The translations under genes and the position numbers were made by a program. The notes below the pieces were generated by a model. The model worked only from the letters and a program-made list of their open reading frames with translations, was not told the origin of the DNA and did not search any database. From positions 1 to 45,108 of the forward strand of contig QHUU01000086.1 in assembly GCA_003222155.1 (NCBI GenBank): a stretch of DNA of 45,108 nucleotides, read 5' to 3'. The stretch is from Gemmatimonadota bacterium. GTDB taxonomy: Bacteria; Gemmatimonadota; Gemmatimonadetes; Gemmatimonadales; GWC2-71-9. Position 1 is the first letter of the stretch, and the number at the start of each line of letters is the position of its first letter. Below are positions 28,987 to 45,108 of this stretch, piece after piece.

Positions 28987-29825
28987 ATCACACGGCGGCC
29001 CGCAGACGCACCTGCCGCCTGGCGCTCGCGGGCCTTGTCGGAACGGTGGCGTGCGCCAGACACTCCCCGCGCGCCGCGAGCCCGAACGTCATCACGATCA
29101 CAGCCACGGACTACGCCTTCGGCGGACCCGACACGATCCCTGCCGGCCTCGCGACGCTGCGCCTGGTCAACGCGGGCAAAGAGCCGCATCAGGCCGGGCT
29201 GGTCCGGGTCGACAGTGGGAAGAGCAGCGCAGCAGTGGAGGCCGCGATGAAGGCGCCCGGGCCGCCGCCGGAGTGGGTGGCGTTCGTCGGGGGCCCCGAT
29301 GTCGTGCTGCCGGGCGACACCGCGAATTCCACGCAGCCTCTCACGGCCGGCCGCTATTTCCTGGTGTGCTTCTTCCCGAGTCCCGACGGCAAGCTGCACC
29401 TCGAGAAGGGGATGTTTCGCTGGCTGGTGGTGCGGGGGCCGGCTCCGCCGGCCGAGTCCGACCCCGCGGGCGATGGGACCATCACGCTGAACGACTACGG
29501 CTTCGAGATCGCGCCGCCGCTGACCGCCGGGGCTCACACCCTGCGCGTGGCGAATGCTGGGCCGCAGTTGCACGAGGTGATGCTGCTGGCGCTCGCGCCG
29601 GGGAAGGGTGCTGCCGACGTGGTCGCCTGGGACAAGGGCGGCATGAAAGGGGCCCCGCCGGCCCGCCCGCTCGGCGGCATCGTGGGGCTCACGCCCGGGC
29701 GGCGCGCGGCGTTCACGGTGACGCTCGCGCCCGGCAGGTACGTGCTGGCGTGCTTCGTGCCCGACGCCGTTGACGGGAAGTCGCACGCCGTGCACGGGAT
29801 GGTGAAGGAGATCACGGTAAGCTAG
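28983..29825 (+). CDS. Lipoprotein-like protein with two cupredoxin domains
   Basis: 280 residues from a TTG start that overlaps the methyltransferase stop (TTGA). A basic N-terminus and hydrophobic stretch end in VAC, a weak lipobox. Two cupredoxin-like beta domains follow (about 30-150 and 160-280). Each shows a possible copper ligand set: KEPHQAG with CFFPSPDGKLHLEKGM in the first, and PQLHEVM with CFVPDAVDGKSHAVHGM in the second. The Cys-to-His spacing (9 and 10 residues) is longer than the 2-4 found in plastocyanin and auracyanin, so copper binding needs testing. A periplasmic electron-transfer or copper-binding role is the best guess. Its stop codon overlaps that of the TonB receptor gene at CTAG. 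Confidence 0.75.
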   Translation: MNHTAARRRTCRLALAGLVGTVACARHSPRAASPNVITITATDYAFGGPDTIPAGLATLRLVNAGKEPHQAGLVRVDSGKSSAAVEAAMKAPGPPPEWVAFVGGPDVVLPGDTANSTQPLTAGRYFLVCFFPSPDGKLHLEKGMFRWLVVRGPAPPAESDPAGDGTITLNDYGFEIAPPLTAGAHTLRVANAGPQLHEVMLLALAPGKGAADVVAWDKGGMKGAPPARPLGGIVGLTPGRRAAFTVTLAPGRYVLACFVPDAVDGKSHAVHGMVKEITVS

Positions 29826-32800
29826 AACACCCACCGCACTCCCGCCTGCAGCTGCCGCGGGTCCCCCAACCCCGAGCGGATCGTGCCGTCGAAGTTGAAG
29901 AGCAACCCGCCGTAGGCGGGGTCTTTGAAGTTGTCGGTGTTCGTGAGATTGAACACCTCGACCATCAGCTCCACCTGCCCCTGGCGCCCGGTATTGACGG
30001 GCCGCGAGACGCGCACGTCCCAGGAGAAGTATGCGTTGTCCTTCCGCAGGGTATTGCGGGGCAGGACCGACCCGTTCGGGCAAATGCGGTCCTGCGGACT
30101 CCCGGCCCGCTGCCCGGTGCCGACGTTGCCGGCGCCGCACTTCTCCGACACGGGCTGTGCCGAGTAGTAGCTCACCCTGTTGTTCAGATAAATCTCGCCC
30201 GGCAGCTTCACCAGCGCCCAGCCGTTGAACCGGTGCCGCTGGTCGCGGTCGCTCCAGTTGTACTCGGGTGCCAGGTCGTTCGCCTTGGCGTAGCGGAACG
30301 TGAACGGATCGCGCTCGTTGTCGTCGTCCGATTTGTCGAACGAGAGCGTGTAGTTCGCCGCGAACTGGAGGTGCGGAGAGGCGACGCGTTTCAGGCCGAG
30401 TGTGATGCCGTTGTAGCGAGACTTGGCGCTCGACTGCACGACGGTGAGCGTCCCGAGCGCCTTCGGTCCGGTGCCCCACGGGCCGACGTTGGCCACCCCG
30501 AACAGCGAATCGTTTGCGTTGAAGAAGCGGGTGAGGAAGTCGGTGCGGGCGTGCGTGTAGGTCAGCGAGACGGCCAGATCCGAGCCGATCTGCCGCTCGT
30601 AGCCGACGGTCGCGCTGAACGTCCGGGGGTTGCGGAAGTCCTTGTCGAACACGAACACTCCCGGAACTGAGACGGCGCTCGCCGGCACCGAGTCCGGGAA
30701 CAGGCTCCCGTACGCCGGCGCCCCGGGGCCACCCGCGCCATAGGTCATGCCTTGAGCCCCGTCGGTGCTGCGGCTTGACGCCAGGTTCAGGCCCGGGATG
30801 CGCGCGTAATAGAGCCCCGCGTTGCCGCGGAAGACCTCTCGGCCCGACCCGTCCGGGTCGTAGGCGACGCCCAGGCGGGGCTGGAACATCTTCCAGTCGG
30901 AGGGGATCGTCCCATCGGACGGAAACGCGAACGTGCCCTTCGCGTTGGTCACCGTCGAGTCGTAGTAGACCGCGTAGTACGTCTGATTTTTCGGCGTGAT
31001 CAAACTCGGCTCGACCTGGGCCTCCCACCGCAGCCCATAGTCCACGGTCCACCGCGGGTTCGGCTTCCAGGAATCCTGCAGGTAGACCGCGAGCTCGTTC
31101 TGTGGAATGGACTGTGTGCCCGCGGCGCGGACGCTGCGGTCTATGCCCGCCTGCTGCAGGTACAGGAGCGGCCCGCCCGTCGTGGAGTCGGCAAGGTAAT
31201 TGAGGAACGCAGTCACCGAGGCAAAGATGTATCGGCTGTTCGCGAACCCGATGAAGGTCTGCACCGAGTTCACCCGGTTCCACTCAGCCCCGAACTTTAT
31301 CAGATGGTCGCCCTTGGCGATCGACACGTTGTCGAGCGCCTGAATGCGAGTGTCGTAGTAATCGATCGGCAAGAAGAACGGCAGGCCGAAGCGGAATCCG
31401 GTGGTGTCCATCCCGGTGTCTGGAAACGGCCGCTTCGCCGGCGGGTCCGCGGGATTGGCACCGAGCGCCGCGGAGCGGGCCCCGCCGTAGGGCCGGGGAC
31501 GGTCCTCGCGGGAGTACTGGAAGCGGAATTCGTTCGTCACTGCGGGAGACAGGTACGACGCGAGCGCCAGATTGCCGGCATTCGAATGGTCCTTCTCGAT
31601 CCCGTTGGCGCTGCGACCCCAGGCGTCGACGTCGAAGGTGCCGTTGTCCTGCTGGGACCACGTGTAGTTGTACTTGAGCGACAGGTTATGCCGGTCGGAG
31701 AGCCGCCAGTCGATCTTCACGAGACCCGCGCGGGCGTCGTTGGTCCGGGAGATCGGCCCGAAGTCTCCGCGCAGCGCGCCGGCAAACGCCGTGTCCATCC
31801 AGCGGGTGAGCGAGTCGAGTGCGGGACTCGAGGGGCGCGTCTTCTGCTTGATCTCGTCGTACACCTGCTGATCGTAGGCGACGAAGAAGAAGGCCTTGTC
31901 GCGTTTCAGAGGGCCGCCGAGCGTGAAGCCGAACTGGTGCTGGCGGAAGTCGGGCGTGAGCGTCTGCGTGCCGTGCGCGAGGTCGGCCGAGAGCCAGTCG
32001 TACTTGCCGAAGTAGTGCAGCGAGCCCTTGAGCTCGTTCGTGCCGGACTTGGTAATCACGTTCACGAACCCCGAGCCCGAGCGGCCGAACTCGGCGGACG
32101 CTCCGCCTGCCGTGACGACCACTTCCTGAACGGCGTCGAGGTTGAAGGTGAACGGCGGGCGTTGCCCACCCCGCTGCTCCCCGAAGAACGGGTTGTTGAA
32201 GTCCGCTCCATCCACGGACACGTTGTTGTGGATGCCGCGCTGTCCCGCCACGGTGAGCTCGTCGCCATCCGGGCCCTGCACGGTCGCGACGTTCGGCGTG
32301 AGGAGCGTGAGATTGAGGAAATTGCGCCCGTTGTTCGGCAGCCCCCCCACGGCCTGGTTGGGCAGCCTGGTGGACGACTCGACCTTGCTCACGTCGACCA
32401 CCGGCGTCGCCGTGACCGTGACCGCGGCGAGCTCAACCGGCTCGAGCTTCAAGGTCAGGTCGACCGTCTCGCCCACCCGCAACACGATCCCCGTCTGCCG
32501 CCGCTCGCCCAGGCCCACAGCCCGGGCCCTGACCTCGTAGGTGCCGAGCGGGAGCAGCGGCGCCACGAACACGCCCTTCTCGTTGGTGGTCACCGTCCGC
32601 TGGAACCGCGTCTGCACGTCGGTGACGGTGACCTGCGCCCCCACGACGACATTGCCGGACGGATCCGAGACGATCCCCCGGATCACACCGGTCGTCGCTT
32701 GGGCCTGCGCTGCGAGCGAGGTGGGCCAGCACGCCAGCGCCAGCACCGCGCCGACCGCCGCGATGCACGGGCGCCACCGGGTGCGAATGCCGCACGTCAT
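29822..32800 (-). CDS. TonB-dependent receptor with carboxypeptidase-regulatory-like N-terminal domain (Oar-like)
   Basis: 992 residues from the ATG at 32800, with a signal peptide (about 1-31, ending SLAAQ). A carboxypeptidase-D regulatory-like beta domain lies at about 36-118 (GVIRGIVSDPSGNVVVGAQVTV). A plug domain follows (about 130-245, with RGIHNNVSVDGADFNNPFF), then a long beta-barrel ending in aromatic Phe (GVRWVF), the outer-membrane assembly signal. The barrel segments and N-terminal extension resemble Oar-type receptors of Bacteroidota, Acidobacteriota and Gemmatimonadota. No SusD-like lipoprotein or TonB/ExbBD gene is adjacent, so the substrate cannot be inferred. Upstream open codons to 32911 precede the signal peptide and look non-coding. 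Confidence 0.9.
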   Translation of the reverse strand: MTCGIRTRWRPCIAAVGAVLALACWPTSLAAQAQATTGVIRGIVSDPSGNVVVGAQVTVTDVQTRFQRTVTTNEKGVFVAPLLPLGTYEVRARAVGLGERRQTGIVLRVGETVDLTLKLEPVELAAVTVTATPVVDVSKVESSTRLPNQAVGGLPNNGRNFLNLTLLTPNVATVQGPDGDELTVAGQRGIHNNVSVDGADFNNPFFGEQRGGQRPPFTFNLDAVQEVVVTAGGASAEFGRSGSGFVNVITKSGTNELKGSLHYFGKYDWLSADLAHGTQTLTPDFRQHQFGFTLGGPLKRDKAFFFVAYDQQVYDEIKQKTRPSSPALDSLTRWMDTAFAGALRGDFGPISRTNDARAGLVKIDWRLSDRHNLSLKYNYTWSQQDNGTFDVDAWGRSANGIEKDHSNAGNLALASYLSPAVTNEFRFQYSREDRPRPYGGARSAALGANPADPPAKRPFPDTGMDTTGFRFGLPFFLPIDYYDTRIQALDNVSIAKGDHLIKFGAEWNRVNSVQTFIGFANSRYIFASVTAFLNYLADSTTGGPLLYLQQAGIDRSVRAAGTQSIPQNELAVYLQDSWKPNPRWTVDYGLRWEAQVEPSLITPKNQTYYAVYYDSTVTNAKGTFAFPSDGTIPSDWKMFQPRLGVAYDPDGSGREVFRGNAGLYYARIPGLNLASSRSTDGAQGMTYGAGGPGAPAYGSLFPDSVPASAVSVPGVFVFDKDFRNPRTFSATVGYERQIGSDLAVSLTYTHARTDFLTRFFNANDSLFGVANVGPWGTGPKALGTLTVVQSSAKSRYNGITLGLKRVASPHLQFAANYTLSFDKSDDDNERDPFTFRYAKANDLAPEYNWSDRDQRHRFNGWALVKLPGEIYLNNRVSYYSAQPVSEKCGAGNVGTGQRAGSPQDRICPNGSVLPRNTLRKDNAYFSWDVRVSRPVNTGRQGQVELMVEVFNLTNTDNFKDPAYGGLLFNFDGTIRSGLGDPRQLQAGVRWVF

Positions 32801-32863
32801 GGTGTAGGGTCTCCGGGAGGAGGTGGTGCGCAAGGGCGCGGGTGAATTAGCACGGTTATGCAA

Positions 32864-32901
32864 GGGCGGCAAGGGCGGCACGGTTGCCGCCCCTGCCGCC
32901 C
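32864..32901. repeat. Strong GC-rich hairpin in the divergent receptor/polX promoter region
   Basis: GGGCGGCAAGGGCGGCA (32864-32880) is followed by a three-base loop and a nearly perfect complement, TTGCCGCCCCTGCCGCC (32884-32900). It lies between the starts of the TonB receptor (minus) and polX (plus). It contains a tandem GGGCGGCAA unit. It could be an operator, an attenuator or an intergenic repeat. Confidence 0.5.
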
Positions 32902-32928
32902 CGCTAGGCAAGGCCCATCTTAGTACCG

Positions 32929-34653
32929 ATGCAGAATCCCGACATCGCCCGCCTGTTCGATGAGGTGGCCGACCTCCTCGAGATCCAGGACGCCAACCCG
33001 TTCCGGGTGCGGGCGTACCGCAACGCCGCCCGCACCATCCGCGACTTTCCCGAGCCGCTCACGGACCTGGTCCGCGCCGGCACCAAGGACCTGACCGAGA
33101 TCCCCGGCATCGGCGACGACCTGGCGGAGAAAATCACCGAGATCGTCACCAGCGGCGCGCTACCGCTGCAGCAGCAGCTGGCACGCAAGCTCCCCGCGGG
33201 CCTGCTCGACCTGCTGCGCATCCCGGGGCTCGGCCCCAAGCGCGTGAAGCTGCTCTACAAGAAGCTCAAGGTGAAATCCGCCGCCGACCTGGCGAAGGCG
33301 CTCGACGCAGGGAAGGTCCAGAAGCTCAAGGGCTTCGGTCCTAAAATGGAAGAGAAGATGCGAGCCGGCCTGGGCCAGGCCCAGGTGACCGAGCGGCGCA
33401 TGCTGCTGAACGAAGCGGAAACCCAGGCGACCGCCGTCGTGGCGTACCTCCAGGCCGGCGGCGGTGTGCGCCAGATCGAGGTCGCCGGCAGCTATCGGCG
33501 GCGCCGGGAGACGATCGGCGACCTGGACATCCTCGTCACGTCCGACTCGAGCGCCCAGGTCATGGACCGCTTCGCCACGTACGGCGACGTGGCGGACGTG
33601 GTCTCGAAGGGCGACACCCGCGCCACGGTCAAGCTGCGGGGCGGGCTGCAGGTGGATCTGCGGGCCGTGGAGCCGGCCGCCTACGGCGCCGCCCTGCAGT
33701 ATTTCACCGGGTCCAAGGCACACAACGTCGAGCTTCGCAAGATCGCCCAGGAGCAGGGCTACAAGCTCAACGAGTACGGCCTGTTCAAAGGGACGCGGCG
33801 CGTCGCCGGGAAGACCGAAGCGGAGATCTATAACACGCTCGGCCTCGACTGGATGCCGCCGGAGCTGCGCGAGGCGCGCGGCGAGATCGCGCTCGCCCGC
33901 GAGCATCGCCTGCCTCGGCTCGTCGAGCTCACGGACATGCGCGGCGACCTGCAGATGCATACGTCCGCCACCGACGGCAAAGGGACGTTCGAGGAAATGG
34001 CCCAGGCGGCGCGGGCGCTCGACTACCAGTATATCGCGATCACCGACCACTCGCAGCGCGTCACCATGACGCACGGCCTCGACCCCAGGCGGTTGCGCGC
34101 CCAGTGGAAAGCGATCGACGCGTGGAACGCCGCGGCGCGCGGCTTCACCATCTTGAAGAGCGTCGAGCTCGACATCCTCGAGAACGGCAAACTCGATCTG
34201 CCCGACGACGTGCTGGCCGAGGCCGACTACGTCGTCGCGACCATTCACTACGGCCTCACGCAAGCCGAGCAGCAGCTGACGCGGCGCCTGGTGGACGCGG
34301 CGGAGCACCCATTCGTGGACGCCATCGGACATCCCACCGGGCGCCTCGTCGGCAAACGCGAGCCCTACCCCGCCGACTTCGAGGCCGTGAGCCGTGCCTG
34401 CGCCGCCGCGGGGTGTGCGCTCGAGCTCAACGGCCACCCCGAGCGGATGGACCTTCCGGACACGCTCGCGGCCGCAGCGAAGCAGTGGGGCGTGCGCTTC
34501 GTGCTCTCGACCGACAGCCACCAGCCCGGCAATCTCACGTTCATGCGCTACGCCGTGGACCTGGCGCGGCGCGCCGGGCTCGAGGCGCGAGACATCCTCA
34601 ATACCCGTCCGCTTGCCGCGTTCCAACGAGAATTGAAGCGCGCGCGACAGTAG
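32929..34653 (+). CDS. polX: DNA polymerase/3-prime-5-prime exonuclease PolX with PHP domain
   Basis: 574 residues. The N-terminal helix-hairpin-helix region (about 1-145) contains [15 protein letters not shown] and [19 protein letters not shown]. The polymerase X nucleotidyltransferase core carries [17 protein letters not shown], with catalytic aspartates Asp198 and Asp200. The C-terminal PHP phosphoesterase domain starts near residue 335 ([14 protein letters not shown], His344; [16 protein letters not shown]). This is the standard bacterial PolX layout, which acts in base-excision repair gap filling with a metal-dependent exonuclease. Length is normal for the family. The ATG at 32929 has no strong ribosome site, but the conserved N-terminus begins right there. 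Confidence 0.95.
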
Positions 34654-34808
34654 CGCCGCACCATCCTGAGGCCGAGTCCGCGCCCGCCGTGCCCGCTGTT
34701 TCGGCACGCCGGATGCACGCGGTGCGGTGCCGTCCCGCGACCGCCGGCGATGGCGGCGCGTTGCACACCGCAACCGACGCTGGTGAGTCGCTGCAGGAGG
34801 GCGAAGGT

Positions 34809-35708
34809 ATGAATCGAGTGCCGCGAGAAACCGGTCTGGACGTCGTGTACGACGGCCTGTGTCGCTTCTGCGAGCGGTCGCTGGCAACGGTGCAACGCAT
34901 CGCGCGACGACCGCTGTTGCGCCTGCACGACGCGAACGATCACGGGACGATCAAGGCGAAGTTCCCGATGCTCGCCGACGCGGACACCAGCAACGCGATG
35001 TTCGTGGTCACGCCGCGCGGCGAGGTGTTCCGGGGGTTCTTCGCATACCGGCGGATCATGTGGGAGAGCCCGCGGCTCTACCCCCTCCTGCCGCTGTTCT
35101 ACGCGCCCGGGGCGGGCCTGATCGGCCCCTTGATCTACGCGTGGGTGGCGCGGCATCGCCGCCACTTCGGCTGCTCGCTGGACGGTGTCGCGCAGTGCAG
35201 CGTCGCGTCCGACCGAGTCGGGCGCCTGGACTGGGCCAAAGGGATCGCCGGCGCGCTGGGCGCGCTCCTCCTGGCCGCGACGCTCGCTCCGGTGGCGCAG
35301 AACTGGAGCCCCGCGCCGAGAGACAACTTCCCGTTTTCGTACTACCCGATGTTCTCCGCGAAGCGGAGCGACACCTACCACGTGAGCTACATCGTCGGTC
35401 TCGACGCGCACGGTCAGCGCCACCAGATCTCGCACTACTTCGCCGGGAACGGCGGCTTCAACCAGACCCGCCGCCAGATCGACAAGCTCATCCGCAACGA
35501 CCGGGCGACGACTCTGTGTCAGGCGATCGCCGGCGCCATCGCGCGGGAAGCGGGACCGCCCTACACTGAGGTCGCGACCGTACAGATCGTGACGGGCGCG
35601 TTCCGGTTCGCGGATTACTTCCGCGCGAACAAGGCTCCCTTGGCGGAGCGGGTGCGCGCGTCCTGCCCGGTCGCCCGCGGCCAGTGGGCGGAGCGCGGCA
35701 GCCGGTGA
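34809..35708 (+). CDS. DCC-type thiol protein fused to a membrane segment and a C-terminal domain
   Basis: 299 residues. The N-terminus (about 8-130) is a DCC/DUF393 thioredoxin-like domain with the signature VVYDGLCRFCERS (Cys18 and Cys21 as a C-x2-C pair, preceded by Asp15-Gly16). A single membrane helix follows (about 140-160, GALGALLLAATLAPVA). The C-terminal part of about 135 residues (FPFSYYPMFSAKRSD onwards) I do not recognise. DUF393 proteins are thought to be thiol-disulfide oxidoreductase-like, but their substrate is unknown. The ATG has GGAGG nine bases upstream. It overlaps the next gene, an HTTM membrane protein, by four bases (GTGA). DCC and HTTM domains are often encoded together. 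Confidence 0.78.
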   Translation: MNRVPRETGLDVVYDGLCRFCERSLATVQRIARRPLLRLHDANDHGTIKAKFPMLADADTSNAMFVVTPRGEVFRGFFAYRRIMWESPRLYPLLPLFYAPGAGLIGPLIYAWVARHRRHFGCSLDGVAQCSVASDRVGRLDWAKGIAGALGALLLAATLAPVAQNWSPAPRDNFPFSYYPMFSAKRSDTYHVSYIVGLDAHGQRHQISHYFAGNGGFNQTRRQIDKLIRNDRATTLCQAIAGAIAREAGPPYTEVATVQIVTGAFRFADYFRANKAPLAERVRASCPVARGQWAERGSR

Positions 35709-36658
35709 CTCGGCTGCTCCGAGCGCTCGACGCGTTCTGGTTCCCGCCGGCGCCGGCGGCCCGGCTGGCCGTGCTCCGCATCCTGGTCGGGGCGTTCGCC
35801 CTCTGGCTCGTGGGCTCGCACTACGCGATGTGGGTGGAGATCGGTCGCTCCAGCCCGACCTTGTTCGCACCCGTGGGTCCCGTGGCCCTGCTGCGCCACC
35901 CGCTGTCGCCGGAGGTGAACCAGGGCGTGATCGTGGCCACCGTCGTCGCGAACGTGCTCTTCGTGCTCGGGTGGCGTCACCGCTTCACCGGGCCGGCGTT
36001 CGCCGCCTTGCTCATGTGGGTGATCTCCTACCGCCTGTCCTGGTCCATGATCTACCACTCCATGAACCTGGTGGCGCTGCACGCCCTTGTGCTCGGTTTT
36101 ACGCCCGCGGCGGACGCACTGTCGTTGGATGCGCGTCGCGCGAGCACGGTGGCGGCGGGGCGCGATCCGGCGGGCGCATGGCAGTACGGCTTCGCGATCC
36201 GGCTGCTGTGCGCCGTCACGGCGCTCGCCTACTTCGTGACCGGTCTCGCCAAGGTCGCGAGTCCGATGGGATGGTCGTGGGCCACGGGCGAGGTGATTCG
36301 CAGCCAGGTGGCCGCCGACGCGCTTCGGAAGGGAGTGCTCGGGGAGACGGGCGGGCCGCTGTTTCAGCTGCTGTACGATCACGTGTGGCTCTTCACGGTG
36401 ATGGGGATCCTGACGTTCGTGGTGGAGCTGGGGGCCCCCCTGGCGCTCCTCAACAAGCGGGCGGGGCAGATCTGGGCCGTCGTCGCCTTCATGATGCACT
36501 GGGGTATCCTCTTCATCATGGGGATCACGTTCCGCTACCATCTCTCGGGCATCCTGTACGCCCCGTTCTTCGACGTGGAGCGCCTGGTCGGCTGGCGTCA
36601 GGCCCGGGGTCGCCGGCGGTCGAGCCGCCTGATCCCCCTGTATCCGGGGACGCCGTGA
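35705..36658 (+). CDS. HTTM-domain membrane protein (vitamin K-dependent carboxylase-like)
   Basis: 317 residues from a GTG start inside the preceding stop (GTGA). The sequence is rich in membrane helices, about six or seven (VLRILVGAFALWLVGSHYAM, VIVATVVANVLFVLGW, FAALLMWVISYRLSW, the run around 170-190, FTVMGILTFVVELGAP, and IWAVVAFMMHWGILFIMG). It resembles the HTTM domain, the membrane part of vitamin K gamma-glutamyl carboxylase found widely in bacteria with unknown substrates. Without the lumenal carboxylase portion it is unlikely to be a complete carboxylase. It is part of a tight operon with a DCC-type thiol protein and two M14 peptidases. Confidence 0.7.
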   Translation: MTRLLRALDAFWFPPAPAARLAVLRILVGAFALWLVGSHYAMWVEIGRSSPTLFAPVGPVALLRHPLSPEVNQGVIVATVVANVLFVLGWRHRFTGPAFAALLMWVISYRLSWSMIYHSMNLVALHALVLGFTPAADALSLDARRASTVAAGRDPAGAWQYGFAIRLLCAVTALAYFVTGLAKVASPMGWSWATGEVIRSQVAADALRKGVLGETGGPLFQLLYDHVWLFTVMGILTFVVELGAPLALLNKRAGQIWAVVAFMMHWGILFIMGITFRYHLSGILYAPFFDVERLVGWRQARGRRRSSRLIPLYPGTP

Positions 36659-36667
36659 GCCGGCCGC

Positions 36668-37957
36668 ATGAGAGAAGATCTGATCGGGCATTCCGAAGCA
36701 GGCAGACCCATCTCCGTCGTCCATGTCGGCGGTGAAACGGCCCCGCTCCGGATCCTGATCGTCGCCGGCCAGCACGGAGACGAGCGCCGGGGACGGCAGG
36801 CGGTCACGCAGTTCGTCGAGCACGGCCAACCGGCTCAGGACCGAGCGGCGCCCGTCGGCATCGCCGTCGTGCCCGATGCCAACCCGGATGGGACGGCACA
36901 AGGCGTCCGGACCAACGCGCGCGGCGTGGATCTCAATCGGGACCACCTGCGGCTCGCCGCGGCGGAAACGCGGGCGCTGCACCAGTTCGTGCGGAGCTGG
37001 CGGCCCCACCTCGTGGTCGATGTGCACGACTTCCCCCCACGGCGCCGCCACCTGCTGGCGCAACAGCTGGTTTACTGCCACGACGTGTTTCTGGACGTGC
37101 CCACGCACCCGGTGGCGCGACATCCGGCGCTGGGCCCGAAGGGGAGCCGCCTGCTGCAGCCGGTCCTGGGAGCGCTGAACGCCGCCGGCTACCGCAGCGC
37201 CCGCTACACTCGGGTCACCAGGTCGGGACGCGTGCGCCACAGCACGCCCGACGTGGTGGATGCACGGAATGGCCTGGCGCTGCGCTACGGGGTGCCGACG
37301 ATCCTGGTCGAGACGCGGGGTCCGTCGCGGCGCGACGATCCGACGGTCGAATCCCACGTGGTCGCGGGCGTACAGCTGGCCCTCGCCCTGATCGTCCGTT
37401 GGGCCCAGGAGCACCGGGTCCCGCTGACCGAAGCCCGGCCCCGGATGCCGGCCGACGACTCGGTGCCGGTGCGTACGCGCTATCGCCACGCGGCCCGCCC
37501 CTGCCGGCTGGCGTTCGCCGACCCACACTCGGGTGAGATTCGCACCGTGGTAGTGCCGGGGCGGTTCACGCCGCACCTCGAGGCCACCTGGCGCGTGCGC
37601 CTCCCCCGGGCATACGCGGTGCCGCGCGACCGTGCGGCCCTGCTCGAGGTGCTACGCCGTCATGCGTTCGCTCTCGTGCCGCCCTCGCCTGACGGGATCC
37701 AACGGATCGAGCGGTACTGGATCGAGCGGCTCAAGCCCTCCCGGCGGCCCGACCGTTCCCCCCATGACCTGACGCTGAGCGTGCAGCTCGAGTCCGGGTC
37801 GCTCGACGAGCACGTGCTCGTCCCCGTCGGCGCGGACGGCGGTGCCGCCCTCGCCGTGCTGCTCGAGCCCGCCTCGAAGCACGGGCTGGCGCGCTTCGCC
37901 GAAATGGAGCTGCCGGTGGCGCCGCAGGCGGCCTATCCCATATGGCGCGTGGTGTGA
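36668..37957 (+). CDS. M14-family zinc carboxypeptidase-like protein, no signal peptide
   Basis: 429 residues with the M14/succinylglutamate-desuccinylase-like catalytic set. HGDE supplies zinc ligands His36 and Glu39. GVDLNRD contains the substrate-binding asparagine-arginine pair, VDVHDF gives zinc ligand His120, and LVETRG has a candidate general base, Glu215. There is no signal peptide or membrane helix, so it is probably cytoplasmic. The C-terminal 180 residues form a separate domain with DPHSGEIRTVVVPGRF that I cannot name. It starts nine bases after the HTTM gene. Its last 16 bases overlap the next M14 gene, so co-translation is likely. Its substrate could be a C-terminally modified peptide. 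Confidence 0.78.
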   Translation: MREDLIGHSEAGRPISVVHVGGETAPLRILIVAGQHGDERRGRQAVTQFVEHGQPAQDRAAPVGIAVVPDANPDGTAQGVRTNARGVDLNRDHLRLAAAETRALHQFVRSWRPHLVVDVHDFPPRRRHLLAQQLVYCHDVFLDVPTHPVARHPALGPKGSRLLQPVLGALNAAGYRSARYTRVTRSGRVRHSTPDVVDARNGLALRYGVPTILVETRGPSRRDDPTVESHVVAGVQLALALIVRWAQEHRVPLTEARPRMPADDSVPVRTRYRHAARPCRLAFADPHSGEIRTVVVPGRFTPHLEATWRVRLPRAYAVPRDRAALLEVLRRHAFALVPPSPDGIQRIERYWIERLKPSRRPDRSPHDLTLSVQLESGSLDEHVLVPVGADGGAALAVLLEPASKHGLARFAEMELPVAPQAAYPIWRVV

Positions 37958-40269
37958 CACCGCTTTTGGTCGCGGCGTGCCTCGGCGGCGCAGCCGCCGC
38001 CGCCCAGGTTCCGTCGCCGGCGTCGTTTCTCGGGTTCGCCGTCGGCGCCGACCGCTCGCTCGCCGACTGGCGCCAGCTCACCGCTTACTTCAACCGGCTG
38101 GCCGCGGCGAGCGACCGGGTGAAGCTCGATACGCTGGGGACGTCGACGCTCGGGAAGCCGTTCGTCCTGCTGACGATCTCGTCTCCCGCGAACCTCCGAC
38201 GCCTCTCGCATTACCGCGACATCCAGCGGAAGCTCGCGGACCCGAGAACGATCGCGTCGACGGCGGAGCGCGAGCAGCTGCTGCGCGACGGCCGGGTGAT
38301 CGTGCTGATCACCGCAGCGATTCACTCGATCGAGGTGGGCTCGGGCCAGGTCCCGGTGCGCATCGCGTATCGGCTGGCCAGCGACACCAGCGCGGAGATT
38401 CGGCGGATCCTGGACGAGGCGATCGTTCTGCTCGTGCCGTCCCTCAATCCCGACGGACTGCAGAAAGTCGTCGACTGGTACAAGTCCACCCTGGACGAGC
38501 CGTGGGAGGGCGCCAAGCCGCCGTTCCTGTACCATCCCTACCTCGGTCACGACAACAATCGCGATTGGTACACGTTCACCCAGAAAGAGACACAGCTCAC
38601 GGTCTCGAAGATCGAGAATGTGTGGCATCCGCAGATCGTGCAGGACATCCATCAGACGGACACGCGCGGGGCACGGTTTTTCGTCCCGCCCTGGCTCGAC
38701 CCCATCGAGCCCAACGTCGACCCGCTCGTCGTGTCCGCCGCCAACGCCCTGGGCACGGCCGTCGCCTGGGACCTGGAGACGGAGGGGAAGCAGGGAGTCG
38801 TCGTGAACGCCCAATACGACGCGTGGACGCCGTCCCGGGCATACACCCATTACCACGCCGGCATCCGCCTGCTCACCGAAACGGCGAGCGCGCGGATGGC
38901 AACGCCACTCGAGATGCCGCTCGACTCGCTGCGGCCCGGCTTGGGGTTCGACCCGCGGGAGCCCTCCTGGAATTTCCCCGACCCCTGGCCCGGCGGGCGC
39001 TGGCGGCTCGCGGACATCGTCGACTACATGGAAGCAGGGACGTTCGCGGTACTGCGGCACGCCGCGGCCGACCGCGAGCACTGGCTGCGCACGTTCTATA
39101 CGATCGGCGAGCGGGCCGTGCGGGGCCGGCCCGGCTGGCCCAAGGCCATCGTGGTCCCGGCCGAGGACCAGAACCCCGACGGTCTGGCAGAGGCGCTCCG
39201 CATCCTCCGGACCGGGGGCGTCGAGGTGGGACGGGCACGCGCGCCGTTCCGAGCCGCCGGCGGGGCGTTTCCGGCCGGCACGTACGTGATCCCCTTGAAT
39301 CAGCCGTACGGGGCGTTCGCGAAGGCGCTGCTCGAGCCCCAGCGATATCCCCAGCTGCGCGAGTACCCCGACGGCCCGCTGCGACGGCCGCACGACGTGA
39401 CGGCCCATTCGATCGGCCTGCTCATGGGAGTGCGCGCCGTGCCCGTGGCGGAGCCGGTATCGGTGGCACTCGACGAGGTGGCGGACGCGCCGGTCGTTCG
39501 CACCGTCGCAGCCGGGCTGCGCGACGCGCGGCCGGCGCCCCGCATCGGCCTGTACGAGAGCTACAGACCCTCCCTCGACGCGGGCTGGACCCGCTGGATC
39601 TTCGACCATTACGGCATTCCGTATGCGACCCTGCACGACACGGACGTGCGCGCCGGCGGGCTGGCTCGACGCCTGGACGTGGTATTGCTCCCCAGTCAGT
39701 CGACCAGGCGGCTCGTGCGGGGCCGCAAGGCCGGTCGGGTGCCGCCGCAGTTCGCCGGCGGTCTCGGGGCGGCCGGCGTGGCCGCGCTGCAGGAGTTCGT
39801 CGAAGCAGGCGGCACGCTGATCACCTTGAACCAGGCGTCGCAGCTTCCCCTCAAGCGCTTCGACCTGCCGATCCGGAACGCGCTGGCCGGCCTCACGCCC
39901 GCCCAGTACTACGCGCCCGGCTCGATCCTCGCCCTCGAGGTGGACCCGCGCCATCCCATCGCGCGCGGCATGTCTCACGAGTCGATCGCGTGGATGGAGG
40001 GCGGGCCCGCGTTCGAGCTCAAGCCCGGGGCCGATTCCAGCCGGGTGACCTGGGTGGCTCGCTTCCCCGACTCGGACTCATTGCTGCTGAGCGGCTGGCT
40101 GGACGGCGCCGACCGCCTCAAGGGCAAGGGCGCGCTCGCCGTCGTGCGCATGGGCAAGGGGCGCGTGGTCCTGTTCGCGTTCCGGCCGCAGTACCGCGCG
40201 CAGTCGATCGCCACGTATCCGCTGTTGTTCAACGCGCTGCGCTGGGCCGGGGACCACCACCTCGACTGA
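37942..40269 (+). CDS. Secreted M14-family zinc metallopeptidase
   Basis: 775 residues with a signal peptide (about 1-21, ending AAAAAQ). The M14 domain (about 30-330) has HSIE (His128, Glu131 as zinc ligands), DNNRDW (substrate-binding Asn/Arg), QDIHQTD (zinc ligand His237) and LLTETASA (Glu313, candidate general base). The C-terminal 400 residues carry a further region ending in a domain resembling the glutamine-amidotransferase-like fold seen in such long M14 proteins (VVLFAFRPQYRAQ). It is larger than most carboxypeptidases and should act in the periplasm or outside the cell. The ATG lies within the preceding gene; this is the last gene of the four-gene DCC-HTTM-M14-M14 operon. Confidence 0.85.
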   Translation: MARGVTPLLVAACLGGAAAAAQVPSPASFLGFAVGADRSLADWRQLTAYFNRLAAASDRVKLDTLGTSTLGKPFVLLTISSPANLRRLSHYRDIQRKLADPRTIASTAEREQLLRDGRVIVLITAAIHSIEVGSGQVPVRIAYRLASDTSAEIRRILDEAIVLLVPSLNPDGLQKVVDWYKSTLDEPWEGAKPPFLYHPYLGHDNNRDWYTFTQKETQLTVSKIENVWHPQIVQDIHQTDTRGARFFVPPWLDPIEPNVDPLVVSAANALGTAVAWDLETEGKQGVVVNAQYDAWTPSRAYTHYHAGIRLLTETASARMATPLEMPLDSLRPGLGFDPREPSWNFPDPWPGGRWRLADIVDYMEAGTFAVLRHAAADREHWLRTFYTIGERAVRGRPGWPKAIVVPAEDQNPDGLAEALRILRTGGVEVGRARAPFRAAGGAFPAGTYVIPLNQPYGAFAKALLEPQRYPQLREYPDGPLRRPHDVTAHSIGLLMGVRAVPVAEPVSVALDEVADAPVVRTVAAGLRDARPAPRIGLYESYRPSLDAGWTRWIFDHYGIPYATLHDTDVRAGGLARRLDVVLLPSQSTRRLVRGRKAGRVPPQFAGGLGAAGVAALQEFVEAGGTLITLNQASQLPLKRFDLPIRNALAGLTPAQYYAPGSILALEVDPRHPIARGMSHESIAWMEGGPAFELKPGADSSRVTWVARFPDSDSLLLSGWLDGADRLKGKGALAVVRMGKGRVVLFAFRPQYRAQSIATYPLLFNALRWAGDHHLD

Positions 40270-40451
40270 CGCGCGCGCGCCGCGAGCCGCGGCACTACGC
40301 TGAGGCTCGCGCCGCACCGCACGCGCCTCAATTGTGTGCGCCGCTCCGCGATCCCCCCTCTGTGCAGTGCGCGACAGAAACGAGAACCCGACATGGCACA
40401 CGCTTTGCCTCCCGGCCCGCACCCGATGCGAGACGGCGTGTGAAACATCCA

Positions 40452-41588
40452 ATGTCGGAGGCGAACTCCTTACGCGAAGCGCCGGTCGTGGTGTCCGACG
40501 ACCGGGGCAGCATGCGCGCGTGCGTCATCCGCTCCACGGGCGGCCTCGATCGCATCGAAATCGCCGACGTCGCGGCTCCGGGCTCACCCGCCTTGCTGGG
40601 CGGGCGCGACGTGCGGGTCGCCATCCGGGCCGTGGCGCTCAACCATCTGGACCTGTTCGTCGTGCGTGGCCTGCCCGGCGAGTATCAGTTCCCCCACATC
40701 CTCGGATCCGACGGGGCGGGCGTCGTGGAAACCGCCGGCCCCGACGTCACCACGGTCAAACCGGGAGACGCCGTGATGATCAACCCCGGCATCTGGGACG
40801 GGACGTGCGCTTTCTGTCGCGCCGGGGAGCATTCGCTGTGCGTGAATTACCAGGTCTTGGGCGAGCACCTGCCCGGCACCCTTGCCGAATCGGTGCTGGT
40901 GCCCGAGGACAACCTCGCCAAGGTGCCGGCGCTCGACCCGCCGATCTCCTGGGCCGAAGCGGCCGCCTTCTCCCTGGTGTCGCTCACCGCATGGCGCATG
41001 ATCGTGACCCGCGCGCGGGTCGAGGCCGGGGAAACCGTGCTGGTCTGGGGCATCGGCGGGGGGGTGTCGCTCGCGGCCATGCGGATCGCCAAGCTGCGCG
41101 GGGCGCGCGTGATCGTGACCAGCTCGAGCGACGCGAAGCTCGCGCAGGCCCGCCAGCTGGGGGCAGACGTCACGCTCAACCACCGGACGCAGTCGGTCGT
41201 CCAGGAAGTCCGGGCGCTCACGGCGCGGCGCGGCGTGGACGTCGTCGTCGAGAACGTCGGTGAGGCGACGTGGGAAGACTCGCTGCGCTGCCTCGCCAAG
41301 GGCGGCCGCCTGGTCACGTGCGGGGCCACGACGGGCCCGCGCGTCGTGACCGATGTGCGACGCCTGTTCTGGAACCAGTACACGATCCTCGGCTCGACGC
41401 TCGGCAACGCGACGGAATATGCGGCGGTGGTGCGCGTGCTCTCGAGCGGCGCGCTGCGCCCTCTCGTGGATCGGGTGTACCCGCTCGCGGAGGCGCGCAC
41501 CGCGTTCGAGCGGCTCGCGCGTGGCGAGCAGCTCGGCAAGGTGCTGGTGGAAGTCCGCGGGTCAGCCGCGGATCCCGTTGTACCCTGA
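40452..41588 (+). CDS. Zinc-binding medium-chain dehydrogenase/reductase (alcohol dehydrogenase-like)
   Basis: 378 residues. A GroES-like domain (about 22-150) precedes a Rossmann fold with GIGGGVSLAAMRIAKLRGA (cofactor NAD(P)H). A structural-zinc lobe is present, but only three of the four cysteines are seen (Cys119, Cys122, Cys130); Asp116 stands where the first is usual. The catalytic zinc cysteine is replaced as in the N-H-x-D variants (ALNHLDLFV). A quinone-oxidoreductase or alcohol/enoyl reductase role is likely. The start is uncertain: ATG at 40512 gives the usual family N-terminus MRACVIRSTGGLD. A 15-base gap leads to the enoyl-CoA hydratase gene, suggesting co-transcription. Confidence 0.85.
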   Translation: MSEANSLREAPVVVSDDRGSMRACVIRSTGGLDRIEIADVAAPGSPALLGGRDVRVAIRAVALNHLDLFVVRGLPGEYQFPHILGSDGAGVVETAGPDVTTVKPGDAVMINPGIWDGTCAFCRAGEHSLCVNYQVLGEHLPGTLAESVLVPEDNLAKVPALDPPISWAEAAAFSLVSLTAWRMIVTRARVEAGETVLVWGIGGGVSLAAMRIAKLRGARVIVTSSSDAKLAQARQLGADVTLNHRTQSVVQEVRALTARRGVDVVVENVGEATWEDSLRCLAKGGRLVTCGATTGPRVVTDVRRLFWNQYTILGSTLGNATEYAAVVRVLSSGALRPLVDRVYPLAEARTAFERLARGEQLGKVLVEVRGSAADPVVP

Positions 41589-41603
41589 CATGGGAAGACT
41601 ACC

Positions 41604-42425
41604 ATGACGACCATGATCGATATCCCAGAGCGCGAGCAGCAGGAGAAGCTCGTGGACTACCGGGTGGAGGACGGCATCGCCTTCATCGAGCTCGACAACC
41701 CCCCGGCCAACACCTACAACTACGACCTGATGCAGCAGCTCGATCAGTCGATCGTGCAGGCGCGGTTCGACGACGATGTATACGTGCTGGTCGTGAGCGG
41801 CCACGGCGACCGGTTCTTTTCCGCCGGCGCGAACATCGCGATGATGCAGCGGGTCACGCCGCGCTTCCTGTACCAGTTCTCGCTGTACGCGAACGAGACG
41901 CTCAACCGGCTGGAGCACACGCCCAAGCTCACGATCGCCGCGCTCAACGGCCACACCGTCGGGGGCGGGCTGGAAATGGCGCTGGCGTGCGACGTGCGCC
42001 TCGCCAAGCAAGGCGCCAGCCGGATCGGCCTGCCGGAGGTCAACCTCGGCGTGCTGCCGGGGCTCGGGGGCACGCAGCGGCTCGCCAAGGTGGTGGGCAA
42101 GGCGTTGGCGATCGAGATGATGGCAAAGGGCGAGACGTTCTCGGTCGACCGCGGGAAGGAGCTCGGACTCGTCAACGAAATCCTCCCGGCCCAGGGATTT
42201 CGGGAGGTGGTGGCCCTGTACGCGCAGCAGTTCTGCCCGCCGCACAAGGCGGCCCGGGCGGTGGGCCTCATCAAGCGCGCGGTGCAATCGGGGGCGGAGC
42301 TGCCGCTCGCCTCCGGCCAGGCGCTCGAGCGCGAGCTGCAGCAGCAGCTGTTCCAGAGCGCGGACGCTCGGGAGGGCATCGCCGCCTTCAACGACAAGCG
42401 CGTCGCGCTGTTCACCGCGGAGTAG
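41604..42425 (+). CDS. Enoyl-CoA hydratase/isomerase family protein
   Basis: 273 residues of the crotonase superfamily. SAGANIAMMQ and NGHTVGGGLEMALACDVRLA form the oxyanion-hole region, and GLPEVNLGVLPGLGGTQRLA carries the typical glutamate. The N-terminal extension (MTTMIDIPEREQQEKLV) is unusual but short. It would hydrate or isomerise enoyl-CoA esters in fatty-acid or branched-chain degradation, in the cytoplasm. The ATG is 15 bases after the dehydrogenase stop, and the patatin-like lipase starts 17 bases after its own stop, so the three genes look like one acyl-CoA/lipid operon. The exact reaction cannot be fixed. Confidence 0.88.
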   Translation: MTTMIDIPEREQQEKLVDYRVEDGIAFIELDNPPANTYNYDLMQQLDQSIVQARFDDDVYVLVVSGHGDRFFSAGANIAMMQRVTPRFLYQFSLYANETLNRLEHTPKLTIAALNGHTVGGGLEMALACDVRLAKQGASRIGLPEVNLGVLPGLGGTQRLAKVVGKALAIEMMAKGETFSVDRGKELGLVNEILPAQGFREVVALYAQQFCPPHKAARAVGLIKRAVQSGAELPLASGQALERELQQQLFQSADAREGIAAFNDKRVALFTAE

Positions 42426-42442
42426 CCGGTCCCGACCGCACC

Positions 42443-43378
42443 ATGCGCAGGGCACTGGTCTTGTCGGGCGGCGGGGCGAAGGGAAGCTGGCAGGTCGGCG
42501 CTTGCCAGCATCTCATCGTCGAGCGTGGACTGTGGTTCGACGTGATCGCCGGCGTCAGCGCCGGCGCCGTCAACGCCGCGGCGCTCGCCCAGGCCCGCGA
42601 TCCCGACGAGCTCGCCGCCGAGCTCGAGCATCTCCGCTCGGTCTGGTTCGGTCTGCGGGGCAGCCACGATATCTACCGGCGACGCTGGCTCGGAGCCCTC
42701 GGCACCGTGCTGGCCCGACGCGCCAGCCTGTACCACGCCGCGCCGCTGCACGCCATCCTCACGCGGCACGTCGACCCCGCGCGCGTGGCGACGTCGCCGA
42801 TCCGCCTGCGCATCGGCTATGTGGATCTCCTGTCCGGCCGCTACCGCACGGCCGGCAACGAGCACCCGACGCTCGTGGACGCGGTGCTGGCGAGCTGCGC
42901 CCTCCCACTGATCTTCCCGCCGGTGCCGCTCGGCGACGGCCACGAGCTGGCCGTGGACGGCGGCCTCCGCAGCGCCACACCGCTCGCCGATGCGCTGGAC
43001 GTCCTGGCGGAGACCCGCGCCCCCCCTCCGGGCGACGAGCCCGACGAGGTCTGGGTGCTCGCCCCGCACGTGGCCGGTCCGATCGCCCAGCCGCGGCTCC
43101 ACAACTGGCTGTGGGTGGCCCTGCGCTCCATTTCGGTTCTGACGAGCGCCCCGCTCCCCGACGGAGACGCGCGCGCCGCGGACGCCGCGACCGCACCGCC
43201 CGCCGGCGTACGGCTGCACGTGCTGCATCCGCGCGAACAGTTGCGCGGCCCGAGTCTCGACTTCGACCCGCGCAAGGTACGGCGGTGGTACGAGGACGGG
43301 CTCGACACCGCGCGTCGCGTGGCCGACGCAGCCGACCTGCGGCTCGAGCCGGAGCTGCAACATGACGTGCCGCCCTGA
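42443..43378 (+). CDS. Patatin-like phospholipase
   Basis: 311 residues of a patatin fold: the oxyanion-binding GGGAKGS at the N-terminus (9-15), the nucleophile Ser39 in GVSAG, and the catalytic aspartate in VDGGL (Asp172). It has no signal peptide. Patatins hydrolyse acyl groups from phospholipids or triglycerides; the neighbouring enoyl-CoA hydratase and dehydrogenase could process the released chains. The C-terminal region (180-311) is rich in Arg/Ala and lacks a recognised domain. It ends 17 bases from the rnhB stop on the opposite strand, a compact convergent junction without an obvious terminator. Confidence 0.88.
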   Translation: MRRALVLSGGGAKGSWQVGACQHLIVERGLWFDVIAGVSAGAVNAAALAQARDPDELAAELEHLRSVWFGLRGSHDIYRRRWLGALGTVLARRASLYHAAPLHAILTRHVDPARVATSPIRLRIGYVDLLSGRYRTAGNEHPTLVDAVLASCALPLIFPPVPLGDGHELAVDGGLRSATPLADALDVLAETRAPPPGDEPDEVWVLAPHVAGPIAQPRLHNWLWVALRSISVLTSAPLPDGDARAADAATAPPAGVRLHVLHPREQLRGPSLDFDPRKVRRWYEDGLDTARRVADAADLRLEPELQHDVPP

Positions 43379-43395
43379 TGCCGCCCTCTGCCGCT

Positions 43396-44028
43396 CTATT
43401 GCCGCCCGATCAACTCCAGCTGGACGACCGGCGCAAACGACTTGCGATGATGGGGCGTGAAACCCCAAGCGGCGAGCGCGGCCAGGTGATCCGGAGTGCC
43501 GTAGCCTTTGTTGCTCTCCCACGCGTACGACGGATGGTGCCGCGCCAACAACTCCATCAGGCGGTCGCGCACGGTCTTGGCGATCACCGACGCGGCGGCG
43601 ATCGAATGGCAGTGCGCATCGCCGTCGATGATCGCGTCGTGTGCGCAGCCCAGCTCGGGACACGGCAGGCCGTCCACCAGGACCAGGCCGGGCGTCAGGC
43701 GCAGGCGGGCGAGCGCGCGCCGCATGGCGAGGATGGACGCTCGGCGGATGTTGAGGCGGTCGATCTCGCGCACACTGGCGGCCCCGACGCCCACCGCCAG
43801 CGCGCGCGCGCGCACCACACCGGCCAGCCGCAGGCGGCGCGGGGGCGGGAGCAGCTTGGAGTCGCGCAAGCCCCGGATGACCTTGCAATGCGGTGGCAAC
43901 ACGACGGCCGCGGCCACCACCGGACCGGCGAGGGGACCGCGACCTGCTTCATCGACACCGGCGACGAGTCCGCCCCCCGCTTCCCAGAACGCGATTTCGC
44001 GCTCGAGCGTGGGGCGGGGACCTCTCAC
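43396..44028 (-). CDS. rnhB: Ribonuclease HII
   Basis: 210 residues starting at a GTG that overlaps the rplS stop (GTGA). The RNase HII motifs are complete: [15 protein letters not shown] (Asp26, Glu27 as metal ligands), LRDSKLL, VLVDG, and [17 protein letters not shown]. It removes RNA from RNA-DNA hybrids and single ribonucleotides from DNA. An open frame upstream to 44271 is only the shadow of rplS. It is the third gene of a trmD-rplS-rnhB unit, a common bacterial arrangement. Confidence 0.94.
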
Positions 44029-44405
44029 GCCTCCTGCTTCTCCGCCGTTTCCGGGACCACGACGCCGCGCTTCTCGCGGATCCGCGCCGCTTTGCCGGCG
44101 AGGCGGCGCAGGAAGTACAGTTTGGCGCGCCGCACCCGCCCCTTGCGCAGCAGCTCGATTTCCGCGATCGACGGCGAGTGCAGGGGAAAAATCCGCTCCA
44201 CGCCCACGCCGGCGGAAATCTTCCGCACGGTGAAGGTCTGGTTGATGCCGGCGCCGCGGCGGGCGATGCACACGCCCTCGAACGCCTGCAGCCGCTCCTT
44301 GTCGCCTTCGCGCACGCGCACCATGACTCGCACCGTGTCGCCCGGGTCGAACGCCTGAAGGTTCGTCTTCAAGCCCTCGCGCTCGATCGCTCTCAGTCGG
44401 TCCAT
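44025..44405 (-). CDS. rplS: 50S ribosomal protein L19
   Basis: 126 residues with the family hallmarks: [12 protein letters not shown] at the N-terminus, [24 protein letters not shown]-type strand, [15 protein letters not shown], and [15 protein letters not shown]. It sits at the 30S-50S interface. The ATG has a strong ribosome site (GGGGGAAGG). It follows trmD by 21 bases, as in many bacteria, and its stop overlaps the rnhB start. The C-terminal tail ([16 protein letters not shown]) is slightly extended. Confidence 0.97.
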
Positions 44406-44426
44406 AACCTTCCCCCTATTCCCGGT

Positions 44427-45108
44427 CTACGCGTCTGCGCGTCTAGCCTGTTCCCACAAGTCGGGGCGTCGCTCGCGCGTCAAGCGCTCGGCTTCGGCCG
44501 CGCGCCATCCGGCGATCTGCTCGTGATTCCCGCTCAACAATACCGCGGGCACATCCATTCCGCGATAGCTCGGCGGCCGCGTGTAGCTCGGCGGCGACAG
44601 CAGCCCGTCGTAATGCGAGTCCGTCGCTGCGGACTCGTGGTCGCCCAGCGCGCCCGGGAGCAGCCGTACCACCGCGTCGAGCACGCACAGCGCCGCCGGC
44701 TCGCCACCCGAAAGCACGAAATCGCCCACCGACAGCTCTTCCGCTCCCAGACCGTCCGCCACCCGCTGGTCCACGTCCTTGTAGTGGCCGCACAACAGCG
44801 TCAGCTCCGTCCCGACCGCGAACCGGACCGCGTCCCGGTGGGTGAAGCGCCGCCCGCGCGCCGACAGCAGGACGATGGGCGGGCCCACCCGCAGGTCCTC
44901 CACCGCTTCGAAGAACGGCTCGGGTTTGAGCACCATCCCCGCGCCGCCGCCGTAGGGGTAGTCGTCCACCGTCTTGTGGCGGTCGTGCGTGTAGCTGCGC
45001 AGCTGCACGATCCGGTAGCGCACCAGCTGCTGCTCCGCCGCGCGCCCCGGAATGCTGACGGCGAGGGCCGCCTCGAACACCTCGGGGAAGAGCGTCACCA
45101 CGTTAATC
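44427..45108 (-). CDS. trmD: tRNA (guanine-N1)-methyltransferase TrmD, N-terminus cut by window edge
   Basis: The readable part is 227 residues beginning INVVTLFPEVF; the true start codon lies just beyond the window. The hallmarks are the SAM-binding trefoil-knot segments DDYPYGGGAGMV, LLSARG, LCGHYKDVDQRV, SVGDFVLSGGE and SYTRPPSYRGMDVP. The enzyme methylates G37 of tRNAs to prevent frameshifting. It precedes rplS and rnhB on the same strand; rimM and rpsP would be expected upstream, outside the window. The C-terminus, at about 227 residues, is near normal length. Confidence 0.95.
   Translation of the reverse strand, partial: INVVTLFPEVFEAALAVSIPGRAAEQQLVRYRIVQLRSYTHDRHKTVDDYPYGGGAGMVLKPEPFFEAVEDLRVGPPIVLLSARGRRFTHRDAVRFAVGTELTLLCGHYKDVDQRVADGLGAEELSVGDFVLSGGEPAALCVLDAVVRLLPGALGDHESAATDSHYDGLLSPPSYTRPPSYRGMDVPAVLLSGNHEQIAGWRAAEAERLTRERRPDLWEQARRADA

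What the first reader, a model, noticed from the sequence alone, without database searches (positions are those of the whole stretch)
34809..40269. DCC-HTTM-M14-M14 operon: candidate undescribed system
A thiol (C-x2-C) protein with a membrane helix, a vitamin-K-carboxylase-like membrane protein, a cytoplasmic M14-like peptidase and a secreted M14 peptidase are coupled by a 4-base overlap, a 9-base gap and a 16-base overlap. DCC and HTTM association is known, but its role is not; joining it to two peptidases, one on each side of the membrane, suggests a pathway that modifies and trims a peptide or amino-acid conjugate. I found no precursor peptide gene, so the substrate is open.
Basis: partly seen in the sequence, partly recalled or inferred. 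Interest (0 to 1): 0.65.

Follow-up and report, generated by a model that had tools for sequence, protein, structure and literature searches.

The report
Split vitamin-K-carboxylase-like gene module with peptidases
Four genes that are present or missing as one block encode a two-part membrane enzyme related to the human vitamin-K carboxylase, a thiol partner and two peptidases; the same core, joined to a ligase-like protein and an exporter, recurs in other bacterial phyla, which points to an undescribed pathway that makes, modifies and exports an unknown compound.

Summary
The four genes are real and the coordinates exact. They sit on a 5.59 kb block (34665-40254) that is missing whole from a sister species whose flanks match on both sides. 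HTTM relatives at 53-67% identity were found in only four other loci. In two Acidobacteriota loci HTTM lies beside a cytoplasmic M14 peptidase (39-41% identical to the window's); with it the window's M14a forms one supported clade, apart from the M14s of its own phylum. The secreted M14 is not conserved there. The "DCC" gene is two domains fused: a CxxC domain and a TM-anchored periplasmic domain ("YPMFS"). HTTM aligns with human GGCX, His118 and Lys183 falling on catalytic His160/Lys218. The periplasmic domain weakly matches the GGCX lumenal domain in fold, so the pair looks like a VKGC split into two chains. Best reading: quinol- and thiol-coupled modification of an exported, possibly glutamate-type conjugate that M14a hydrolyses in the cytoplasm. 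The module is well supported; the chemistry is inferred.

The parts
34665..40254 (+). presence/absence block: absent from sister genome G059, where the PolX and ADH flanks (about 89% DNA identity) are joined with ~10 bases between them
34654..34808 (+). 155-base leader with a good ribosome-binding sequence (aggagggcgaaggt) before the DCC start; no precursor gene, no Rfam hit
34809..35708 (+). DCC/YPMFS fusion: N-terminal DCC1-like thiol domain (aa 12-121, CRFC 18-21), TM (aa 145-163), C-terminal periplasmic domain
   Evidence: the two halves are encoded apart in L133 and L139
35328..35669 (+). YPMFS domain (motif FPFSYYPMFS), proposed split counterpart of the VKGC/GGCX lumenal domain; no Pfam or NCBIfam match
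   Evidence: fold match weak (Z 3-3.7)
35705..36658 (+). HTTM membrane protein, homologous to the GGCX transmembrane domain
36056..36058 (+). His118 codon, aligned with GGCX His160; invariant in 5 of 5 relatives
36251..36253 (+). Lys183 codon, aligned with GGCX Lys218 (catalytic base); invariant in 5 of 5 relatives
   Evidence: role of K218 from PMC12589487
36668..37957 (+). M14a: cytoplasmic zinc peptidase/amidohydrolase (nearest solved structures: cytosolic carboxypeptidases, MpaA, more weakly succinylglutamate desuccinylase)
37942..40269 (+). M14b: secreted M14 peptidase with a DUF4350-like C-terminal domain; optional member
   Evidence: common family in the phylum, not seen in the L133/L139 loci

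Best explanation
The block encodes the membrane-modification and hydrolysis half of an undescribed, patchily distributed small-molecule or peptide pathway. HTTM plus the periplasmic YPMFS domain form a vitamin-K-carboxylase-like enzyme split into two chains: HTTM supplies the quinol pocket and the catalytic Lys and His, YPMFS the linker and lumenal cap. The cytoplasm-facing DCC domain (CxxC) feeds or resets it with electrons or thiols. In the full module a BioD/DUF1611-like P-loop protein activates or conjugates the substrate in the cytoplasm, an ABC exporter passes it out, the HTTM enzyme modifies it at the outer face of the membrane, and M14a (replaced by an alpha/beta hydrolase in other lineages) cleaves the conjugate in the cytoplasm, for turnover or self-protection. 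M14b trims or scavenges the product outside. Shown here: the module's existence, co-inheritance of HTTM and M14a, HTTM/GGCX homology with the catalytic residues kept, and domain fusions and splits linking DCC, YPMFS and HTTM. Inferred: YPMFS as lumenal domain, quinol-coupled chemistry, a glutamate-type conjugate as substrate, order of steps.
For: Block absent as one unit from a sister genome. HTTM relatives 53-67% identical in the own-genome paralogue C45, a Chloroflexota MAG and two Acidobacteriota genomes, against 32% or less for other members of the order. Each of those loci has a YPMFS domain beside HTTM; DCC is fused to YPMFS (window, C45), fused to HTTM (L133) or a separate gene (L139). 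M14a orthologues adjoin in L133 and L139 (tblastn E 2e-67 and 1e-97), form one clade with the window's (96/94), and the L133 genome has only that copy at E <= 1e-8. A DUF1611-like protein lies in L133, L139 and C45 and an ABC exporter in L132, L133 and L139. HTTM against GGCX-type HTTMs: HHalign 97.8%, E 1e-12, H118/H160 and K183/K218 aligned. Paracoccus albus has an HTTM with a fused VKGC lumenal domain plus DUF393 next to a DUF1611-like/ABC/hydrolase trio. YPMFS model residues 43-156 match GGCX 396-490, the lumenal domain, at Z 3-3.7, with several GGCX chains among the top rows. M14a relatives of known structure include MpaA and succinylglutamate desuccinylase.
Against: No DUF1611-like or ABC exporter gene lies beside the window block; the genome's two DUF1611-like genes are on other contigs and the exporter was not searched for there. 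M14a has no orthologue in the Chloroflexota genome, and what follows HTTM in C45 is unknown because the contig ends. YPMFS against lumenal-domain profiles is not significant (HHalign E 0.2-0.9); Z under 4 and a model pLDDT of 71 from 3 sequences are weak, and Foldseek alone found nothing. No substrate, precursor or biochemical data. M14b is not conserved in the relatives. Only five loci of this HTTM subfamily are known, all in draft genomes. A profile of this HTTM subfamily did not itself reach GGCX in the PDB sequence search.
Confidence: 0.5

Rival explanations
1. Peptide-toxin or RiPP maturation locus of the SDP or linaridin sort: HTTM and partner mature a ribosomal peptide, the peptidases remove a leader, and the precursor gene lies elsewhere or is too short to see.
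For: HTTM proteins occur in linaridin clusters together with an alpha/beta hydrolase (PMC9927463), as in L132 and near the alphaproteobacterial loci. An ABC exporter is present in the relatives. That SdpB is an HTTM-type protein with a TM-anchored partner SdpA is my own knowledge.
Against: No short precursor ORF in the leader; no NCBIfam match for HTTM or YPMFS even at E 10, where SdpA/SdpB models exist to my knowledge; no linaridin dehydration genes seen; the DUF1611/BioD-like partner is not a RiPP enzyme known to me. Short ORFs in L133 and L139 were not searched systematically.
Confidence: 0.2
2. Pure redox housekeeping: DCC, YPMFS and HTTM form a thiol-quinone oxidoreductase (VKOR/DsbB-like role), and the peptidases are operon passengers used for nutrition.
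For: DCC has a CxxC motif, HTTM a probable quinone site, and secreted M14 peptidases are common in this phylum. The L133 exporter's best NCBIfam score is to CydD, a thiol-reductant exporter, though far below its cut-off.
Against: M14a orthologues accompany HTTM in two Acidobacteriota loci and form one clade. The module is patchy, not housekeeping: 2 of 297 Acidobacteriota and 1 of 251 Chloroflexota genomes, and missing from the sister species.
Confidence: 0.15
3. Self-resistance or detoxification unit: M14a and the P-loop protein inactivate a foreign or self-made amino-acid antibiotic and the exporter removes it; HTTM/DCC protect or repair the envelope.
For: Patchy presence and plasmid-borne relatives of the P-loop/exporter pair in Rhodobacterales; a DUF1611-like relative sits in a Priestia cluster with PEP-mutase-family and ATP-grasp genes, which looks like a phosphonate antibiotic cluster.
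Against: Does not explain the conserved HTTM/YPMFS/DCC enzyme; no defence-family match for the four window proteins.
Confidence: 0.12

Closest known systems
Vitamin K-dependent gamma-glutamyl carboxylase (GGCX/VKGC)
   Same: HTTM homologous over about 262 columns; residues aligned with His160 and Lys218 conserved; periplasmic partner domain in the place of the lumenal domain (weak fold match)
   Different: two chains, no Arch domain, no propeptide-bearing substrate gene, linked to DCC, M14a, P-loop protein and exporter
Linaridin biosynthetic clusters (e.g. corynaridin crdG HTTM, crdE hydrolase)
   Same: HTTM with an alpha/beta hydrolase (as in L132) and transport
   Different: no precursor peptide or dehydration enzymes seen; DCC, YPMFS, M14a and DUF1611-like partners
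Bacillus SdpA/SdpB (SDP toxin maturation)
   Same: HTTM-type protein with a small single-TM partner exposed outside (own knowledge)
   Different: no NCBIfam match to HTTM or YPMFS; no SdpC-like gene noticed
Rhodobacterales plasmid unit: alpha/beta hydrolase + DUF1611-like + ABC exporter
   Same: P-loop protein (about 31-39% identity) and exporter; P. albus also has HTTM-VKGC lumenal and DUF393 adjacent
   Different: usually without HTTM nearby; alpha/beta hydrolase in place of M14a

Membership tests
VKGC/GGCX-like enzyme | HTTM transmembrane domain homologous to GGCX | tested here: met
   Pfam PF05090 over cut-off; HHalign prob 97.8, E 1e-12
VKGC/GGCX-like enzyme | catalytic Lys218 and His160 equivalents | tested here: met
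   K183 and H118 aligned and invariant in five relatives
VKGC/GGCX-like enzyme | lumenal/periplasmic domain of the VKGC type (PF22777) | tested here: inconclusive
   no Pfam hit, HHalign E 0.2-0.9, VIA Z 3-3.7 to GGCX 396-490
VKGC/GGCX-like enzyme | quinol-dependent carboxylation or epoxidation activity | not testable with these tools
   needs biochemistry
DCC1-like thiol oxidoreductase | PF04134 domain with CxxC | tested here: met
   E 1e-12; CRFC 18-21
M14 metallocarboxypeptidase (M14a, M14b) | HxxE...H zinc site and catalytic Glu | tested here: met
Linaridin cluster | precursor peptide and linaridin modification enzymes | tested here: not met
   no precursor in the leader; the block holds only the four genes
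SDP (SdpABC) system | SdpA/SdpB family match and SdpC-like toxin gene | tested here: inconclusive
   no NCBIfam hit at E up to 10 for HTTM and YPMFS; no search for a toxin gene was made
Known anti-phage defence system | PADLOC model match | tested here: not met
   no match for the four window proteins

The most novel reading that the evidence does not exclude
A complete, undescribed pathway in which a VKGC split into two chains, served by its own thiol protein, uses quinol chemistry to carboxylate or oxidise a small exported glutamate-type conjugate made by a BioD/DUF1611-like ligase, rather than a protein, with M14 enzymes as its dedicated deconjugases.
Probability: 0.22. Interest if true: 0.85.

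Novelty: new variant of a known kind. Interest (0 to 1): 0.6.

Why it matters
What bacterial HTTM proteins do is largely unknown although the human relative is central to blood clotting. This module gives HTTM fixed partners (split periplasmic domain, CxxC protein, cytoplasmic hydrolase, ligase-like protein, exporter) and a natural present/absent species pair, so substrate and chemistry become directly testable. It would also show that the VKGC enzyme can exist as two chains and perhaps work on something other than a large protein substrate.

Tried and rejected
Scans of viral contigs with the P-loop and HTTM profiles found nothing, and with M14a only distant M14s. Plasmids hold no close HTTM or DCC relative. 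PDB sequence search with the HTTM profile: nothing; phmmer hits of HTTM to elastase are chance. Foldseek with the YPMFS model gave nothing under E 0.2. The M14a model was unusable (pLDDT 40). HHalign of YPMFS to the VKGC lumenal domain not significant. No further split-lumenal intermediates beside other HTTMs of the order; only L154 (G033) shows a split PF22777 protein beside an HTTM. Defence-system reading rejected. Literature: no paper with DUF393 and HTTM together, nor DUF1611 with N-acetyltransferase; the few papers naming DUF1611 or DUF393 alone looked irrelevant from their titles and abstracts.

Full report
Observation. Pfam names them DCC1-like, HTTM, Peptidase_M14 and Peptidase_M14 plus DUF4350. 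Flanking genes are a PolX-type DNA polymerase (32929-34653) and a zinc-type alcohol dehydrogenase (40452-41588).

A block. In G059, a species of the same genus, PolX and ADH (96% protein identity) are neighbours; its DNA matches window 31185-34664 and 40255-45108 at about 89%, with about 10 bases between. So 5,590 bases holding most of the leader and all four genes bar the last 15 bases of M14b are present or absent as one unit. G059 keeps about 15 bases resembling the 3' end of M14b (CACGACGTCCACTGA against CACCACCTCGACTGA), which favours loss there rather than gain here. G+C and GC3 of the block are like the flanks.

Relatives. In 121 genomes of the order no HTTM exceeds 32% identity to the window's except a paralogue in the same genome, contig C45. 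C45 (3.8 kb) reads: the C-terminal end of an AMP-binding enzyme, a DUF1611-like P-loop protein, DCC/YPMFS (64%), HTTM (67%), contig end. A scan of 84,980 species genomes found two more: L132, a Chloroflexota MAG (ABC exporter, YPMFS, HTTM, alpha/beta hydrolase), and L133, a Bryobacteraceae MAG (DUF1611-like, ABC exporter, YPMFS, HTTM fused to DCC, M14a, then an uncharacterised protein and an oligopeptide-type ABC system). That scan used only two short HTTM peptide patterns, so the count is a lower bound. Profile search of 297 Acidobacteriota gave one more, G671 (L139): DUF1611-like, ABC exporter, M14a, YPMFS, HTTM fused to an M48-type peptidase, DCC alone. 251 Chloroflexota gave none beyond L132.

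Reading the set. HTTM and YPMFS are adjacent in all five loci; DCC is fused to one or the other or stands alone in four of the five (no DCC hit on the short L132 contig). Such fusions and splits argue that the three act together. M14a is next to them in three of the five. Of the other two, C45 ends inside HTTM, and L132 carries an alpha/beta hydrolase homologous to one found with DUF1611-like/ABC pairs in Rhodobacterales. The L133 genome has a single M14a at E <= 1e-8, the linked one. A tree of 40 M14 proteins puts the three module M14as in one supported group (96/94), apart from all sampled M14s of the window's own phylum. The window's M14a has no hydrophobic N-terminus and the other two lack one by eye; zinc and catalytic residues are invariant.

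What the enzyme looks like. HTTM aligns with GGCX and GGCX-type HTTMs (prob 97.8, E 1e-12), with H118 on H160 and K183 on K218. In GGCX K218 is the base that deprotonates vitamin K hydroquinone, H160 helps hold the Glu, and linker residues Met401/Met402 line the pocket (PMC12589487). The YPMFS domain follows one TM; its AlphaFold model (pLDDT 71) aligns, weakly (Z 3-3.7), with GGCX 396-490, putting the FPFSYYPMFS motif at about the GGCX linker YSWDMM (the motif placement is read from the range ends). G033 has a Pfam-recognised VKGC lumenal domain as a separate TM protein beside an HTTM (FTWNMFS motif), so split enzymes exist. In Paracoccus albus an unsplit HTTM-lumenal protein plus DUF393 stands by the DUF1611-like/ABC/hydrolase trio. 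Together these make the split-VKGC reading likely but not shown.

Substrate. The DUF1611-like protein has a BioD/MobB-type P-loop (weak matches); M14a's solved relatives are cytosolic carboxypeptidases, MpaA and, weaker, succinylglutamate desuccinylase, several of which act at Glu bonds (own knowledge). A glutamate-type conjugate is therefore a fair guess, no more. No precursor gene was found.

Doubts. The window itself lacks the P-loop and exporter genes; whether the copies on C45 or C14 serve it is unknown. M14b has no counterpart in the other module loci; secreted M14a-like and M14b-like genes occur close together elsewhere in the phylum without HTTM, so M14b may be an add-on. Draft genomes and few loci limit all of this. 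The window's own taxon is not named by the tools.

Noticed in passing
L075 (own genome contig C45, 1-3809, minus strand): Paralogous DCC/YPMFS-HTTM pair (64-67% identity) preceded by a DUF1611-like P-loop gene and the end of an AMP-binding enzyme; its HTTM carries a ~60-residue insertion and is cut by the contig end.
   Followed up: partly
L147, L148, L149, L150, L159, L160 (alphaproteobacterial plasmids): Recurrent alpha/beta hydrolase + DUF1611-like + ABC exporter unit (in Microvirga the P-loop gene is annotated as a transposase), in Paracoccus near an ECF sigma factor and an S8 peptidase; I found no description of it.
   Followed up: partly
L151 (Priestia megaterium plasmid NZ_CP085446.1) 4730-13418: A DUF1611-like gene inside a cluster with PEP-mutase-family, TPP-enzyme, ATP-grasp and M20 genes, resembling a phosphonate antibiotic cluster.
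   Followed up: no
L139:8974-11637: HTTM fused in one frame to an M48 peptidase with a TPR-like tail.
   Followed up: no
L154 1048-2894 (G033:C128): A VKGC lumenal domain as a separate single-TM protein overlapping a downstream HTTM gene: a recognisable split VKGC.
   Followed up: partly
L087, L089, L092, L093, L094: Secreted M14a-like and M14b-like peptidases about 1.5-2 kb apart, without HTTM or DCC.
   Followed up: partly
L146:10182-11315 (own genome contig C14): Second DUF1611-like gene, 67% identical to the C45 one, alone beside dnaJ/grpE-type genes.
   Followed up: no
window 29822-32911 (-): Large carboxypeptidase-regulatory-like/TonB-receptor-type outer membrane protein upstream of the block, by eye from its sequence.
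   Followed up: no
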